Origin: Gloeobacter kilaueensis JS1
Lineage (GTDB): Bacteria > Cyanobacteriota > Cyanobacteriia > Gloeobacterales > Gloeobacteraceae
Direction of reading: 5' to 3'
Assembly (NCBI RefSeq): GCF_000484535.1
Contig: NC_022600.1
Span: 4,456,234 to 4,520,233 of the forward strand
Length of the DNA stretch: 64,000 nucleotides
Position 1 is the first letter of the stretch, and every line of letters starts with the position of its first letter. Shown one piece after another: positions 14,160-20,586 of this stretch. A program made the translations under genes and the position numbers. The notes beneath the pieces were generated by a model. That model did no database searches and was not told where the DNA came from. It worked only from the letters and a program-made list of their open reading frames with translations.

Positions 14160-15737
14160 CTACTGACAGAGGTTTCTTCGCCGTTTCAAAGCGTGTCCTG
14201 CCTGAGCAATAAACAGCAGCACGGCACTCAAGGCTGCGTATCCCGTCTGCACGACGGGTGTGGCGACGCCGTACCACCCGGCAAAATCCAGCCAGCCAGT
14301 CCGCCCGCCGTCATTGAATATCAGATACAGAAGCGGAATAGCGAGCGCAATAAACGTCGTCGGACCACCGGTCCACGTCCCGAGAGCCACAGCGGCAGCA
14401 GTTACAAGGAGCAGGCCAATCGCCAGCGAGAGAGCAGCGGAGGGGTTCGAGAACAAGATTCGACAACCAGGCAGAGCGAAAAAACTCAGCGCCAGAAACA
14501 CACAGGTGCTCCACTTCCACACAACCCACCGGTCCGGCAAATTTGGCACGACAGCGATAAGCGCGCCTGTACCCGCGAGTTTTTCACGCACCGGCACATC
14601 CGCCAGCAGCAACACCAGGATCAAGAAGAGGCAGGGAAGTGCAAAGCGCTGCAGGTACTCGGGGGGAGCCAGACAGGACAGGGCTGACACTGCAAAACAG
14701 AGCGCAACTACTTTGGGCCGCATTGCCCAGGTCAACAAGCAATCAGCAATGACAACGCGCAGCAGCCAGGGCAGCCCGGCAAGTCGCCCAAAGCACAGGC
14801 TCAGCCACTGCGGGTTTTCTTTTGTACTCACTCCGCCTGCTTTTTTGAAGCCCGGCTGAGGCAGGCGGGATTTACGTTTGGTGGGGTCAAATCGATCGAA
14901 CAAAAAGTAGCCCATCCAGGCGAGGGGCACAATAACAGCTAAGGTTGCAAATCTGAGCAGGACTTGCGCAGGTTCAAAATGCAGTCCTGGAAAGATAAAC
15001 GAGGGAAGGCCAGGCTGATAAGTTACAAGCCCGATAGAATAATTCCTTCCTGCCGTTATCAGCGATAGCTGTTCTACGGCCCAACCCATTCCGCTCACAT
15101 CTATCAGTCGCGTCCAACTCAAAGAACCACCAATTACAAACTCAGCAACCGGCAAGCTGACGAGCAGTAGCCAGCATCCAAAGTAAATAAAACTTCCCAA
15201 TCGTCCTGCCAGCAGAACTGTAGCTTCAAACGCGAACGCAGCGACCGGTACAAATAGCAGAACTGGCAGGAGGATCACCAAGTAGGTAGTGATGTACACT
15301 ACCGGCTCAAAAGCAGCCTCCCCCCGCAGCCAGTGCATCCCCACAATGCTGAGGAATAAGCCGAGAGCAAGCAGCCAGAGGAAGGAGCCGCTGCCCAAAA
15401 TCGCACCAAGCACATACTGCGCGTTGGTCATCGGTGTAGCGGCAATTGTCGAATCGGTGTGACTTTCGACCTCCCGCTGCAGTGCGCCGAATACCAGATA
15501 AAATCCCCAGAGGCTGACTATTACAGCACTCAGCAGGGCGGTGGCCAGAGACAGGGTAGCAGAGTTGTAAATAAGCCGTTGTCCATCGACCTGCATCAGC
15601 GTCATGCCGCTCGATCGATCCGGGATCAGGCTGTAAGCGAGTACGGGAAGCAAAAAAAACAAGAAAACTGTCCCCGGTTGACGGAGCCGGAGCTGCAAGT
15701 GCGTCCTGGCAATCGCTGCAATTTTAGATAGAAACAT
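14160..15737 (-). CDS. ABC-2-type transporter permease, multi-spanning
   Basis: A 525-residue hydrophobic protein with about ten or more predicted membrane segments and no nucleotide-binding motifs. Its start overlaps the end of the ATPase gene by 14 bases, so the two form one transporter. The length is about twice that of a simple ABC-2 permease, suggesting two permease halves in one chain. Base composition is less GC-rich than in the flanking genes. The substrate is unknown. Its gene neighbours are a pentapeptide-repeat protein and a large acidic protein, which makes export or self-protection conceivable. Confidence 0.8.
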   Translation of the reverse strand: MFLSKIAAIARTHLQLRLRQPGTVFLFFLLPVLAYSLIPDRSSGMTLMQVDGQRLIYNSATLSLATALLSAVIVSLWGFYLVFGALQREVESHTDSTIAATPMTNAQYVLGAILGSGSFLWLLALGLFLSIVGMHWLRGEAAFEPVVYITTYLVILLPVLLFVPVAAFAFEATVLLAGRLGSFIYFGCWLLLVSLPVAEFVIGGSLSWTRLIDVSGMGWAVEQLSLITAGRNYSIGLVTYQPGLPSFIFPGLHFEPAQVLLRFATLAVIVPLAWMGYFLFDRFDPTKRKSRLPQPGFKKAGGVSTKENPQWLSLCFGRLAGLPWLLRVVIADCLLTWAMRPKVVALCFAVSALSCLAPPEYLQRFALPCLFLILVLLLADVPVREKLAGTGALIAVVPNLPDRWVVWKWSTCVFLALSFFALPGCRILFSNPSAALSLAIGLLLVTAAAVALGTWTGGPTTFIALAIPLLYLIFNDGGRTGWLDFAGWYGVATPVVQTGYAALSAVLLFIAQAGHALKRRRNLCQ

Positions 15738-16605
15738 AACCCGTGGAAGCCAGCGGTTCGTTGATTGCCAAAAATGCCTCTTCGAGGGTCGGCTCTACCA
15801 AGTGAGCGTCTTCTAATGGTTTTTGAGGACACACCAGGCGCAGATGAACACCCTCCGCCTTCTGCACAACCGAGGAAACCTTATATCGTGTTTGTACCTC
15901 CGGTAGCTGCTGCGAGGGAATAACGGCCTGCCATACCTGCCCTCTCGCTCGATCTATAAGTACTTCGGGCGAAGCGCACTCGATAATTCTGCCCTTGTGC
16001 AGCACCGCCACTTCAGAGGCAACCGTTTCGATATCCGAGACGATATGAGTAGAAAAGACAACGATCCGCTCGCTGCCGATCCTGCTCAGGATGCTTTTGA
16101 AACGGTTGCGCTCCTCCGGATCCAATCCCGCCGTCGGCTCATCCACGATCAACACTTCCGGCTCGTTGAGCAAAGCAACAGCAATACCGAGGCGTTGCTT
16201 CATTCCGCCTGAGAAAGTACCTGCCGGGCGGTGGCTGACGTCGTGCAGGTTCACCAACTCAAGCAGTTCCATCGGGCGATTGCGGCTGGAGATTCCCTTG
16301 AGTGCAGCGAAATAGCTGAGGAATTCAAGAGCGGTGAGACTGCTGTATACGCCAAAATTTTGCGGTAAATAGCCTAACTTCTGCCGCAAAAAATCAGGTT
16401 GGGCAACGACATCGACATCCCGAAAAAAGATACGTCCCGATGTTGGAGGCGTCACTGTCGCAAGCATCTGCAAAAGCGTCGTCTTACCGGCCCCGTTGGA
16501 ACCCAGCAAACCCAACACGCCCGTCTTGATTTCAAGGAATACACCAGCGACAGCAGGTTGCTGGCTTGATTTGTAGCACTTGGATAAGTTTTCCAGTATC
16601 AGCAT
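15724..16605 (-). CDS. ABC transporter ATP-binding protein
   Basis: A 293-residue ATPase with Walker A GSNGAGKTT (about 34-42), signature FSGGMKQR (a variant of LSGGQ), Walker B VLIVDEP with the D-loop GLD, and H-loop STHIV. The first 210 residues are a CcmA/DrrA-type nucleotide-binding domain; the C-terminal 80 residues are a dimer/regulatory tail common in exporters of the ABC-2 type. It pairs with the permease that overlaps its 3' end. A 108-base gap separates it from the upstream pentapeptide gene. Confidence 0.9.
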   Translation of the reverse strand: MLILENLSKCYKSSQQPAVAGVFLEIKTGVLGLLGSNGAGKTTLLQMLATVTPPTSGRIFFRDVDVVAQPDFLRQKLGYLPQNFGVYSSLTALEFLSYFAALKGISSRNRPMELLELVNLHDVSHRPAGTFSGGMKQRLGIAVALLNEPEVLIVDEPTAGLDPEERNRFKSILSRIGSERIVVFSTHIVSDIETVASEVAVLHKGRIIECASPEVLIDRARGQVWQAVIPSQQLPEVQTRYKVSSVVQKAEGVHLRLVCPQKPLEDAHLVEPTLEEAFLAINEPLASTGYVSI

Positions 16606-16713
16606 AGTATTCGCTTTTCAAATTGTACTGCTAATGTGCGGTTATTTTTGTGAAATTTTAAAATGCCGCTCGTACACATGTGCAGAATTCTATACGGTGC
16701 CAGAGTCCGTGCC

Positions 16714-17409
16714 TTACCTACCTCCTAGACGCGGGTTGCCATTTTCCTCAGTGTCATCCAGAAGATTTGCCTCACGTAAATCTGTGCAAAACAAAATGGC
16801 CTTAGAGAGAGCAGCCCTGCCAATGGAAGCACCGCTTATAAGCGTCTCATCGAATCTTGCGCCATCCAGACTAGCCTTATAAAGATTGGCTCCTCGTAGA
16901 TCCGTTGCTGCCAGATTTGCTCCTCGCAAATCTGCCTCTCGTAAGTTCGCCAGAAGCAGCGTAGCACTGTCGGCATTCACTTCGCACAGATTCGCTCTTT
17001 GCAAATTCGCCTTATCTAATCTGGCACCTTCGAGTGACGTATTTCTGAGAATGGCGTCAGATAAATCTGCCCCCTTTAAGTTGGCTCCAGATAGCACAGC
17101 ATAGGAAAGATCAGCCCCTGCTAACTGTCGCCTTTCAGTCGGTATATTGACGATTTCCCAAACCAGCCTCCATTTCGGATCTAATTGCGTCTGCTCATCG
17201 ATGAGAACTCCGTCTAGGCGGACGTGATTGAAGACCGTCCCAGACAGATTTGCACCGCGCAAGTCTGCCTGCTTCAGCAATGAGCCAGTCATAACTGCAC
17301 CGCTTAGATTAACTCCCCGTAAATCTGGGCATACAAGAGCAGCCTGCAGACCCCGATGGCCCTCGGCGTACTTCCTCAGCAACTCTCGAACGTCACGAAT
17401 GTGGGTCAA
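16714..17409 (-). CDS. Pentapeptide-repeat protein
   Basis: A 231-residue protein dominated by A(D/N)Lxx repeats in two blocks (about 27-72 and 95-210), predicted to fold as a right-handed quadrilateral beta helix. The blocks are separated by a non-repeat insert containing DPKWRLVWEIVN, seen in many cyanobacterial pentapeptide proteins. There is no signal peptide or membrane segment. Relatives include DNA-mimicking gyrase protectors (McbG, Qnr, MfpA), but most cyanobacterial members have no known function. It lies 42 bases after the large acidic protein gene and upstream of the ABC pair. Confidence 0.85.
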   Translation of the reverse strand: MTHIRDVRELLRKYAEGHRGLQAALVCPDLRGVNLSGAVMTGSLLKQADLRGANLSGTVFNHVRLDGVLIDEQTQLDPKWRLVWEIVNIPTERRQLAGADLSYAVLSGANLKGADLSDAILRNTSLEGARLDKANLQRANLCEVNADSATLLLANLREADLRGANLAATDLRGANLYKASLDGARFDETLISGASIGRAALSKAILFCTDLREANLLDDTEENGNPRLGGR

Positions 17410-17451
17410 AGCTCATCTTGCTCCATATACAATACAGTGCGCAGCGAGACC

Positions 17452-19347
17452 TTATTGCTCGGGTGACTGATAACCAGTAGCCTTTTCAGCTATAGTCTTA
17501 CCCACTTCGGAACCAGAAAAATACCCAACTGCACCACCAATCAAGCCACCAACTGCACCGCCCACAACCGTACCTAGCCCTGGCATTATAACTGTACCGA
17601 TTGTTGCTCCAAGCCCGCCCCCTGCCTCTGCTCCAGCCCAACCACCAGCCCAACCACCAGCGATCCGAGAACCCTCAACAATTGAGTTGTCCCAATTACC
17701 AGTTTGAACGCTCTCGCTGATCTCATTTCCAAGCGACCAAGTATCTAGAGCGACCCCAGTTACTAGTGCTGCCCGACCGAGAGGCTTGGCTGCTTTTAGA
17801 GTTTTGCCCAGTGCTTCTTCAAAAGGTTCCGCTAAAGTGTGATCCGACTTACCGAAAGCCTGAAAAGACTTATTTTGGTTCCAATGCCAGTTCTCTTTAT
17901 ACATGTTCTTACCAGTTACCGGATCAACTTGTGTCTTCCCAGTTGCAGGGTCGATTACGGGGGTACTAACGTTTGGTCCGTAATCGAGGCGCAAGCCTCT
18001 CCACTTGTTAGGGTTGCCAGTTAATGAATCTACTTGGTTGACATATCCATGACTAGTGGGATTTTTGAAGCCTGAAATGTCTCGGAATGACAAGTTGAAA
18101 TCAGTTGGAGTACCCTGGGAATTCGGCAACTGTTTCCAAATTGGATATGTTAATTCCTGTAGCAGTCCCGTACCAAACAGTCCTGCCTTGCCTGCATCTG
18201 CTAGAGCTGTACCACTGGGCTCAGCGTTCAGGCTTTGGTTGCCATCGTCGGCTGTTTGAGAACCGGTGGAAAGATTAGCATGTAACAGGGGAACTGCATC
18301 TTCATGAATCTGCTCTATCGGGACTGTAGGAGACTCAAGACTCATATCGGAGCAACTTGCATTTGTGTTGAATAATCCAAGTGCATCTTGAGGCAATAGT
18401 TCACCCAAGAGTTCAGACTCAACTATATTAGTGGCATACTGCCCATCACCGATAGCTTGCGTATCTAGCTGGTTGTTCTGCAAATTGCTAGATTCGTCAC
18501 CTTCGAGTGGCATATTTCTTGTAAGAGCTAACATACTGTAACCGTCATTCTGACTGGTATCCACTTCATCTTCTTCTCTGTTATTGCCAGAGAAATTTTC
18601 TAGCTCAGCATCTCCTATTAACTGCTGGTTAGTCATATCAATCTGCCAATTATTGGAAAGCAGTTCCTCCTCCCAGTTGTTTCCACTCTCCAATGGTTGC
18701 CAGATCTCACTCCTACTATCGTAAAAATATTCAGCACTCACATCTGCATCAGCCTGGCTCTGGTTCAGGTTTTGCTCCCAGTCACTAGTTTCTCCAATAT
18801 CAACATTATTCAAATCATACTCTGTGTTGTTAAAACTGTAGTTTTGCAATTCAAAAGCGTCATCTCTGACGCGCCAATCATACACGAAGCCTGGCACGTT
18901 CGGATCATCTTGTTCGTCTGTATAGCCTTCTAGCTGCTGACCTTGATTGATACCTTGCGGGTCATAGCCATTGTCTAGATCAAGATTACTAGAGTTAGAG
19001 TCGGATGAAAAATTTTCGTTGTCATAGCCTGTCTCTATGGCAGCCCAATCATCGTCTGGGTATGCATCACCAACTTGCCACTCGCTTCGGTCAGCATCAG
19101 TGCTAGTAAAGTCCGTCTCGTACTCCGACTCATCTAGCTCTCCTTCACTGTTGGCCCCACTGTCCTCAGCATATTGCGAATTTTCCTGTTCGGGGTCTGT
19201 GGTGTATTCCTGGCTCTGCTGGTCAAAAGCTGCGATGTACTCCTGGTCTGCTTGATCAAACTCTGCCATCTCGTCAGGTGGGTTTCCCTCAGCGTTAGAG
19301 CTGCTGTACTCGTCGCTGCACTCTGCAAACTCCTGCTCTTCATCCAT
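17452..19347 (-). CDS. Large acidic low-complexity protein with C-terminal glycine zipper
   Basis: A 631-residue protein that I do not recognise. Residues 1-386 are rich in Asp, Glu, Asn, Gln and Ser, contain many aromatics and hold no lysine at all; the first lysine is residue 387. Residues 440-505 (LRLDYGPN, then paired TGK motifs, then HWNQNKS and SDHT) recall small C-terminal modules of secreted polymorphic toxins, a loose resemblance only. Residues 562-612 form a GxxxG glycine zipper that could insert in a membrane. There is no signal peptide. The coding DNA is clearly AT-richer than its surroundings, suggesting transfer. It heads a minus-strand series with the pentapeptide and ABC genes. 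Confidence 0.75.
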   Translation of the reverse strand: MDEEQEFAECSDEYSSSNAEGNPPDEMAEFDQADQEYIAAFDQQSQEYTTDPEQENSQYAEDSGANSEGELDESEYETDFTSTDADRSEWQVGDAYPDDDWAAIETGYDNENFSSDSNSSNLDLDNGYDPQGINQGQQLEGYTDEQDDPNVPGFVYDWRVRDDAFELQNYSFNNTEYDLNNVDIGETSDWEQNLNQSQADADVSAEYFYDSRSEIWQPLESGNNWEEELLSNNWQIDMTNQQLIGDAELENFSGNNREEDEVDTSQNDGYSMLALTRNMPLEGDESSNLQNNQLDTQAIGDGQYATNIVESELLGELLPQDALGLFNTNASCSDMSLESPTVPIEQIHEDAVPLLHANLSTGSQTADDGNQSLNAEPSGTALADAGKAGLFGTGLLQELTYPIWKQLPNSQGTPTDFNLSFRDISGFKNPTSHGYVNQVDSLTGNPNKWRGLRLDYGPNVSTPVIDPATGKTQVDPVTGKNMYKENWHWNQNKSFQAFGKSDHTLAEPFEEALGKTLKAAKPLGRAALVTGVALDTWSLGNEISESVQTGNWDNSIVEGSRIAGGWAGGWAGAEAGGGLGATIGTVIMPGLGTVVGGAVGGLIGGAVGYFSGSEVGKTIAEKATGYQSPEQ

Positions 19348-19836: not shown

Positions 19837-20586
19837 TTACAGGCTATCCGGGTCGATCCCCGCTTCCTTGAGCTTCTGTGCGAGAGCTTCGGCCCACTGT
19901 TCAGCTTCTCTAGCGCGTTGCTCTGCCAGTTCGGCTCGTTCCGGATCAGAAGGAATCCACCGCCCTTCACTGTCGTACCACCGCAACCACTGCCGCTCCC
20001 AGTCGGCAAACCTTCCCCTCCACATTCCCAGACCGATCTGCAGTTCCTCTATCCACAGACGACTCTCGGACTGCTCTCTATAAAGCCCCGCTTCCAGACG
20101 AAATATCTGCAGCATGTCGTCTACCCGGTTGAAGAGCACGTAGTAGGGCACCTGCAATAGCTGCTCGTACACTTCCCACTTCGAGGGCGGTTGCTGGCCG
20201 CGCAGCGTCAGCCCCTGGTCTTCTTCGATCGTGTTGGGGGAAAGCAGTTCGACGACGACGAGGGGCGAGCGCCCTTCCTGCCAGCGCACATAGCTGAGCC
20301 TGCCGCCCTCGACGAAGCGGGGGACACTCACCACTGCAAACCAGTCCGGGCGCTTGTAGTACTTGGGATTGTTCGGATCGTAGTAGATATTCAAATCGGC
20401 GGCGGTAAGCACCTGCTCGATGGGCACAGTTGGGGGCATGAAGGTTTGAGTGAGCAGTTGGGGCTGCCAGTCGTGGAACTGGTCGGGCAAACCAGGTTCC
20501 TTGGGGTTCTCGCTTGGTAAATCGTACATCGTGGGCAAAAGCGGGTTTGCCAGCGGCAGCGGGGATCCTGGCTTGAAGGCATTCAT
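19837..20586 (-). CDS. Uma2-family (DUF820) putative endonuclease
   Basis: A 249-residue protein of the restriction-endonuclease-like Uma2/DUF820 family, which is much expanded in cyanobacteria. Seen are NIYYDPNNPKYYKRPDWFAV, the VVVELLSPNT strand with the expected acidic residue, and YVLFNRVDDMLQIFRL. The last 50 residues are a charged coiled-coil tail rich in Arg, Ala and Glu that is usual for this family. Nuclease activity is predicted, not proven, for most members. It is a single gene. Confidence 0.85.
   Translation of the reverse strand: MNAFKPGSPLPLANPLLPTMYDLPSENPKEPGLPDQFHDWQPQLLTQTFMPPTVPIEQVLTAADLNIYYDPNNPKYYKRPDWFAVVSVPRFVEGGRLSYVRWQEGRSPLVVVELLSPNTIEEDQGLTLRGQQPPSKWEVYEQLLQVPYYVLFNRVDDMLQIFRLEAGLYREQSESRLWIEELQIGLGMWRGRFADWERQWLRWYDSEGRWIPSDPERAELAEQRAREAEQWAEALAQKLKEAGIDPDSL

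What the first reader, a model, noticed from the sequence alone, without database searches (positions are those of the whole stretch)
14160..19347. Four-gene island resembling a toxin plus McbEFG-style protection set
On one strand lie a large acidic protein with a glycine zipper, a pentapeptide-repeat protein, an ABC ATPase and an ABC permease. Microcin B17 uses an ABC exporter (McbE, McbF) and a pentapeptide protein (McbG) for export and self-protection, and pentapeptide proteins can protect gyrase. The island is AT-richer than its surroundings. The link to a toxin is by analogy only and none of the genes is a proven homologue of the microcin set.
Basis: inference. Interest (0 to 1): 0.7.

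Follow-up and report, generated by a model that had tools for sequence, protein, structure and literature searches.

The report
Gloeobacter toxin–pentapeptide immunity pair
Two of the four genes look like a bacterial weapon and its antidote (an acidic protein ending in a membrane-crossing toxin-like module, and a pentapeptide-repeat protein always encoded right after it), while the two transporter genes beside them appear to be unrelated neighbours.

Summary
The four genes are real, at the stated coordinates, on one strand, in an AT-rich stretch. They are two units, not one. (1) The 631-aa protein has a fast-changing acidic N-terminus and a conserved 250-aa C-terminal module: an LRLDYG…HWN…H domain, then a helical glycine zipper. 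At 9 of 9 loci in four Gloeobacter genomes this module is followed, 18–45 bp downstream, by one family of pentapeptide protein. In Tistrella the module is a stand-alone protein beside a T6SS vgrG gene, overlapping a downstream partner gene by 4 bp. Related acidic proteins keep the zipper, change the middle domain, and are followed by ankyrin proteins (3 of 3). This is the layout of a polymorphic toxin with cognate immunity. (2) The ABC pair occurs beside only this one locus; its relatives in two Gloeobacter species sit next to an AMP-binding enzyme, away from any toxin locus. The genome has no YcaO, so the microcin B17 analogy fails except for the general idea of pentapeptide self-protection. 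Gyrase protection has no support. The main rival is that the pentapeptide protein is a chaperone: one acidic locus with a different C-terminus also carries it. Toxicity, immunity and delivery are inferred, not shown.

The parts
17452..19347 (-). Acidic 631-aa protein: putative polymorphic toxin
   Evidence: ORF; family with a conserved C-terminus and variable N-terminus
18202..19347 (-). Acidic, probably disordered N-terminal region (putative delivery region)
   Evidence: net charge -87 over 378 residues; similar to the second own copy (shuffle z 24), not detectably similar to the G. violaceus or B-type N-termini tested
17821..18201 (-). Middle domain of the C-terminal module, with LRLDYG (about 17977-17994) and WHWN (about 17878-17889); putative toxic domain
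   Evidence: invariant L70 R71 L72 D73 G75, H106 W107 N108, F116, H121 across Gloeobacter, Tistrella and Lichenicola (A3)
17473..17820 (-). Helical glycine-zipper segment; putative membrane insertion or translocation
   Evidence: alignments; homologous to the zipper of the ankyrin-linked acidic proteins (hhalign probability 98.3); weak Pfam glycine-zipper and Colicin hits below cut-off; tape-measure and tail-lysin PHROGs
16714..17409 (-). Pentapeptide-repeat protein: putative immunity protein
   Evidence: Pfam; alignment A2; model pLDDT 84.3
17104..17205 (-). Insertion motif LIDExTQxDxKWRxxWExVN in the pentapeptide protein, hallmark of the paired family
   Evidence: all 10 matches with E<1e-20 among 242 genomes are the pentapeptide proteins of the pair loci
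15724..16605 (-). ABC ATPase (DrrA-like, below cut-off); neighbour, probably not part of the system
   Evidence: relatives at other sites
14160..15737 (-). ABC-2-type permease partner of the ATPase; neighbour, probably not part of the system
   Evidence: relatives 38-39% identical only in two other Gloeobacter; the G. violaceus relative weakly matches ABC2_membrane_5 (0.013)

Best explanation
Genes 17452-19347 and 16714-17409 form a toxin-immunity pair of polymorphic-toxin type. The acidic N-terminus takes the protein to an unidentified delivery route. The C-terminal module is the effector: a small LRLDYG/HWN/H domain does the damage, and the glycine-zipper helices insert into the target cell's membrane, either to pass that domain through or to act as a pore. 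The pentapeptide protein, translated from the next gene, binds the module and protects the producer and its kin. The ABC pair 14160-16605 is an independent operon that happens to lie next to the pair. Shown: conserved pairing, module boundaries, homology to a T6SS-linked stand-alone protein, domain and partner swapping. Inferred: toxicity, binding, delivery, target.
For: C-terminal module conserved (58-67% identity to the window) at 9 loci in 4 Gloeobacter genomes, while N-termini diverge. Pentapeptide gene directly downstream at 9 of 9, gaps 18 bp in seven, 42 and 45 bp in two. Conversely all 10 strong members of the pentapeptide family sit in those loci, one locus having two in tandem. The module, at about 33% identity, is a complete protein (234 and 244 aa) on a Tistrella mobilis plasmid, twice in a row after an annotated vgrG, and once on a Lichenicola plasmid, each overlapping the next gene by 4 bp. 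Acidic proteins with the same zipper but another middle domain are followed by ankyrin proteins at 3 of 3 loci; ankyrin immunity proteins are catalogued in polymorphic toxin systems (passages of PMC3482391). A glycine zipper was reported as needed for translocation of the T6SS DNase Tde1 (abstract of PMC10240207). Distances of middle domain and pentapeptide protein correlate across the 9 loci (r 0.78, Mantel p 0.0014), though shared ancestry alone could give this.
Against: No domain library names a toxin here (PADLOC). The AlphaFold model of the module failed (mean pLDDT 37), so the fold is unknown. A third acidic locus in the same genome (L117) has a different C-terminus, an aspartyl protease gene between, and still a 43% identical pentapeptide protein, which an immunity protein specific to this module does not predict. 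The Tistrella and Lichenicola partners are not pentapeptide proteins. No secretion gene is linked; a contractile-injection locus exists in the genome but about 1 Mb away. Three of the nine copies have the N-terminus cut off by a stop or frameshift.
Confidence: 0.62

Rival explanations
1. The pentapeptide protein is a chaperone or loading adaptor for the acidic protein, not its immunity protein; self-protection is elsewhere or not needed.
For: Pentapeptide proteins are accessory parts of some T6SS spikes (TvpB; PRP-fused DUF2169; passages of PMC13373197 and PMC11883445). One acidic protein with another C-terminus is also accompanied by it (L117).
Against: Related acidic proteins are followed by ankyrin proteins, not pentapeptide proteins (3 of 3), and another acidic protein (L144) has neither next to it. 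The order toxin-then-small-gene is the usual one for immunity.
Confidence: 0.2
2. One reading: four genes are one functional set, toxin plus ABC export plus pentapeptide self-protection, like McbEFG.
For: Same strand, short gaps (42, 108, -14 bp) and shared low GC at this locus.
Against: ABC genes absent around the other 8 pair loci; relatives at unrelated sites in two species; no YcaO in the genome; McbEF-type export of a 631-aa protein would be unusual.
Confidence: 0.06
3. Not a weapon: a Gloeobacter-specific acidic surface or structural protein with a membrane anchor (glycine zipper) and a scaffold partner.
For: No signal for a known toxin domain; glycine zippers also occur in outer-membrane and other proteins (weak hits).
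Against: Stand-alone copies beside a T6SS vgrG with overlapping partner genes; swapping of middle domain and partner; copy multiplication, tandem partner and decayed remnants.
Confidence: 0.12

Closest known systems
Polymorphic toxin systems (Zhang et al. 2012, PMC3482391; passages read)
   Same: Variable toxin region, downstream partner gene, repeat-type immunity proteins (Imm-ank, HEAT, LRR), orphan or tandem immunity genes, decayed copies
   Different: The acidic N-terminus is none of the trafficking domains named in the passages seen; 'pentapeptide' does not occur in the held text (first 300,000 of 354,187 characters); the LRLDYG/HWN module has no Pfam or NCBIfam model
Stand-alone proteins beside vgrG on Tistrella mobilis plasmid pTM1 (WP_014747145, WP_014747143)
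   Same: Same module, 33-35% identity, all key residues and the zipper; overlapping partner gene
   Different: No acidic N-terminus, partner is not a pentapeptide protein; annotated hypothetical
Tde1, T6SS DNase with a glycine zipper (PMC10240207, abstract)
   Same: Glycine zipper joined to a toxic domain
   Different: Zipper N-terminal in Tde1, C-terminal here; delivery known there, unknown here
Cdz glycine-zipper bacteriocins of Caulobacter (PMC5380434, passages)
   Same: Glycine-zipper proteins with a linked immunity gene
   Different: Type-I-exported two-protein bacteriocin with membrane immunity protein CdzI
Microcin B17 operon, McbEFG (recalled; papers seen only in search listing)
   Same: A pentapeptide protein next to a transporter
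   Different: No YcaO, no small precursor gene seen, ABC pair not conserved with the pair

Membership tests
Polymorphic toxin system | Variable C-terminal toxin region on a shared N-terminal trafficking region | tested here: inconclusive
   Middle domain varies with a constant zipper. L117 and L144 share an N-terminus (z 13.8) but not a C-terminus. The window N-terminus matches only its own-genome copy strongly (z 24), others weakly (z 1.7-3.2) or not at all.
Polymorphic toxin system | Cognate immunity gene directly downstream | tested here: met
   As gene order only: 9 of 9 pentapeptide, 3 of 3 ankyrin, 3 of 3 non-repeat partners in Tistrella and Lichenicola; function not tested
Polymorphic toxin system | Toxicity neutralised by the partner | not testable with these tools
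   needs expression experiments
Polymorphic toxin system | Link to a secretion system | tested here: inconclusive
   Relatives lie beside vgrG in Tistrella. In Gloeobacter only an unlinked contractile-injection locus (sheath, two tubes, Pvc16_N).
Microcin B17 (McbABCDEFG) | YcaO cyclodehydratase | tested here: not met
   0 matches in the whole genome, control rings in 5 of 14
Microcin B17 (McbABCDEFG) | ABC pair conserved with the pentapeptide immunity gene | tested here: not met
   1 of 9 pair loci
Gyrase-protecting pentapeptide proteins (Qnr, MfpA) | Reaches the curated score of the family | tested here: not met
   Qnr 37.3 of 240, MfpA 49.9 of 360 bits
Gyrase-protecting pentapeptide proteins (Qnr, MfpA) | Strongly acidic DNA-mimic surface | tested here: inconclusive
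   Net charge -2 for the window protein, -7 to -17 for the other nine; surface charge not mapped
Pore-forming colicin domain (PF01024) | Reaches the Pfam gathering score | tested here: not met
   14.7 of 23.4 bits; PDB Colicin Ib E 0.3, pyocin S5 0.49

The most novel reading that the evidence does not exclude
Gloeobacter species carry an undescribed class of polymorphic toxins with acidic N-terminal leaders. A new effector module (LRLDYG/HWN domain plus C-terminal glycine zipper), shared with T6SS-linked proteins of Alphaproteobacteria, is fired by their contractile injection system and neutralised by pentapeptide-repeat proteins, a scaffold not yet catalogued as toxin immunity. Swapping of the toxic domain is matched by swapping pentapeptide for ankyrin partners.
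Probability: 0.22. Interest if true: 0.72.

Novelty: new variant of a known kind. Interest (0 to 1): 0.5.

Why it matters
Pentapeptide-repeat proteins are abundant in cyanobacteria and mostly without a known role; PF00805 gave 97 matching stretches in this one genome. A conserved pairing with a toxin-like module gives one family of them a testable job as an antidote, other than gyrase protection. The module also points to the unnamed Tistrella and Lichenicola proteins as probable effectors, and would add competition weapons to the earliest-branching cyanobacteria (the branching order is recalled, not tested).

Tried and rejected
McbEFG reading: rejected on synteny and the absent YcaO. Gyrase protection: no support. 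Spread in Cyanobacteria: the A1 profile over 386 genomes of the phylum gave 74 genomes with matches. Outside Gloeobacter these fall mostly in the zipper part. The 29 loci read showed glycine-rich proteins without a pentapeptide partner, many of them from one family of small genomes (f46). The middle-domain profile A8 matched only the own genome of 386; the other Gloeobacter genomes gave no match row there and seem not to have been in that draw. Viral contigs: none of 76 candidates confirmed. Phages: no match. Genome contigs: one locus, Aphanocapsa lilacina, which is G002. AlphaFold of the module (2 rows) was too poor to search with and was not used. tRNA search for an integration site: none in the window. 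Promoter and terminator scan: promoters at chance, terminator-like sites 12 against 6.2 expected, none decisive. Rows left out of the 9-locus count: the N-terminal match of the second own copy (L022), two zipper remnants (G002:C93, G001 2274951), three B-type loci (G003, G002:C17, G005), two zipper-only matches (G056, G011). Of ten pentapeptide proteins, nine were used for the motif profile A6; that of L036 was left out.

Literature: (pentapeptide repeat protein, immunity protein, toxin-immunity together) found 0 papers. One search found 6 holding pentapeptide repeat, immunity protein and polymorphic toxin, of which I searched passages in three (PMC12419801, PMC11481896, PMC3942780); none of those passages describes a pentapeptide immunity protein. 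Searches gave further listings. One search (Gloeobacter with pentapeptide repeat) gave 12 papers, seen as a listing only. PMC11148199 (T6SS effector-immunity pairs) holds 'pentapeptide' 0 times in its main text.
Full report
What is there. The four ORFs are as described: permease 14160-15737, ATPase 15724-16605, pentapeptide protein 16714-17409, acidic protein 17452-19347, all minus strand. GC is 0.55, 0.53, 0.51 and 0.46-0.49 against 0.61 for lepA, 0.59 for the Uma2 gene and 0.61 for the hydrolase beside them. The genome is one contig of 4,724,791 bases; from memory that is the size of Gloeobacter kilaueensis JS1, and G001 (4,659,019) and G003 (4,921,229) match from memory G. violaceus and G. 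morelensis. G002 corresponds to a contig titled Aphanocapsa lilacina. No tool named the other three.

The acidic protein. It has no Pfam hit at E<=0.1 and no NCBIfam hit. A search of 59 relatives found its last 250-290 residues at 57-62% identity over the stretch matched at eight further loci, which with the window makes nine loci in four Gloeobacter genomes: two in the window's genome, three in G001, one in G002, three in G003. The N-terminal 74-455 residues before the module are very acidic (net -16 to -99 in eight of the nine; the ninth ORF is cut short at its front). The window's N-terminus resembles that of its own-genome copy strongly (z 24 against shuffles) but shows no detectable similarity to the tested G. 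violaceus copies or the ankyrin-linked proteins. The C-terminal module has two parts: a middle domain with invariant LRLD-G, HWN, F and H, and a helical glycine-zipper segment. Three of the nine copies have the N-terminus separated from the module by a stop or frameshift, yet module and downstream gene stay open.

The partner. In all nine loci the next gene on the same strand is a pentapeptide protein, 18 bp downstream in seven, 42 in the window, 45 in the second own copy, which has two pentapeptide genes in tandem. These proteins share an unusual insertion, LIDExTQxDxKWRxxWExVN, between repeats. A profile of this insertion run over 242 genomes of the class found matches in 54. The ten matches with E below 1e-20 are exactly the ten pentapeptide proteins of the nine loci; the next is 2.7e-12, and weaker matches, mostly in longer pentapeptide proteins, occur in other cyanobacteria. 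I read the neighbourhoods of ten of these weaker matches; nine showed nothing like the acidic protein, and the tenth is the L117 locus described below.

Relatives outside Gloeobacter. tblastn against 72,556 plasmids gave two records. In Tistrella mobilis pTM1 the module makes up two complete proteins of 244 and 234 aa, each with its own partner gene, downstream of an annotated vgrG and two hypothetical genes, each overlapping the following gene by 4 bp. Lichenicola cladoniae has one 235-aa protein with the same overlap. These partner genes have no pentapeptide match. Alignment shows the same LRLDYG, HWN, H and zipper (A3). This is the best evidence that the module is an effector, since effector-immunity pairs commonly follow vgrG (established knowledge; not tested here).

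Domain and partner swapping. Three further acidic proteins (G003, G002, G005) share the zipper (hhalign probability 98.3, E 2.3e-14, computed on the G003 and G005 copies) but not the middle domain, and at 3 of 3 loci the next gene is an ankyrin-repeat protein (Pfam run on the G003 one); the G002 copy is damaged. The G005 middle domain has a sub-threshold hit to DUF7587 (0.031). Imm-ank is a catalogued immunity type (PMC3482391, passages). In the window's own genome two more acidic proteins share an N-terminus (L117 and L144, z 13.8) with different C-termini; L144 has its own glycine-rich segment.

Results against the reading. L117 is the awkward case: acidic protein, then an aspartyl protease with PDZ domain, then a pentapeptide protein 43% identical to the window's. 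Its C-terminus is not the module. A similar acidic-plus-protease pair (L145) has no pentapeptide gene next to it. So the pentapeptide family is not strictly tied to the module. Either it also serves another toxin, or it acts on something the acidic proteins share, as a chaperone would. T6SS spikes do use pentapeptide accessory proteins (passages). The correlation of distances (r 0.78) does not decide, since paralogous loci would give it anyway. The window's own pentapeptide copy is shortened at both ends.

The ABC pair. It is a DrrA-like ATPase (193.7 bits, cut-off 312) with a divergent permease. Among 59 relatives the permease occurs outside the window's genome only in G001 and G003, at 39% identity. 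There the pair follows an AMP-binding enzyme (Pfam run on the G001 one) and no toxin locus is in the fetched stretch. BLAST of the window ATPase and permease against all ORFs of the stretches around the other eight pair loci found neither (only L043, L044 and a weak ATPase hit in the unrelated L042). The four-gene set is therefore found at this one locus only.

Mechanism. Most likely: acidic leader for delivery, zipper helices for entry into or through the target membrane, middle domain as the toxic part, pentapeptide protein as antidote. Zipper-driven entry has a precedent in Tde1 (abstract). The zipper also resembles glycine-rich parts of phage tail proteins and, below cut-off, the colicin pore domain, so a pore with no enzyme remains open. 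All four Gloeobacter genomes carry a contractile sheath gene, in the window's genome next to two tube genes and Pvc16_N, but genomes without the pair carry it too, and linkage is absent.

Verdict. Observation confirmed; interpretation half right. It is a probable new variant of polymorphic toxin-immunity pair with pentapeptide-type immunity; the ABC transporter and the microcin B17 parallel should be dropped.

Noticed in passing
L117:4212-7481 (G000 3.99 Mb) and L145:3137-5318 (G000 3.93 Mb): Acidic proteins with a C-terminal cysteine-containing tail followed by an overlapping gene for an aspartyl protease with PDZ domain; a pentapeptide gene follows only the first.
   Followed up: partly
L144:4130-5482 (G000 1.24 Mb): Another acidic protein with a different glycine-zipper C-terminus; a small hydrophobic protein of 108 aa is the next gene on the strand.
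   Followed up: partly
L109:14010-19001 and L110:1-258 (G000 3.51 Mb): Contractile-injection-type locus: sheath, two gp19-like tubes, Pvc16_N, DUF6760.
   Followed up: partly
L139:3469-7485 (G046): Row of coiled-coil (partly WXG-like) proteins around a 288-aa protein with a glycine-zipper C-terminus, in another cyanobacterium.
   Followed up: no
L039:5029-6288 (G002:C17): ORF in which the start of an ankyrin protein runs into a B-type acidic protein whose zipper end is lost; compare intact L033.
   Followed up: no
L048-L075, mostly G handles of family f46: Many genomes of about 2 Mb encode 300-500-aa proteins with a central glycine zipper, alone, no repeat-protein partner seen.
   Followed up: partly
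window 19837-20586: Uma2-family nuclease-like gene upstream of the acidic gene, same strand; relatives also lie near the B-type loci (L033, L039).
   Followed up: no
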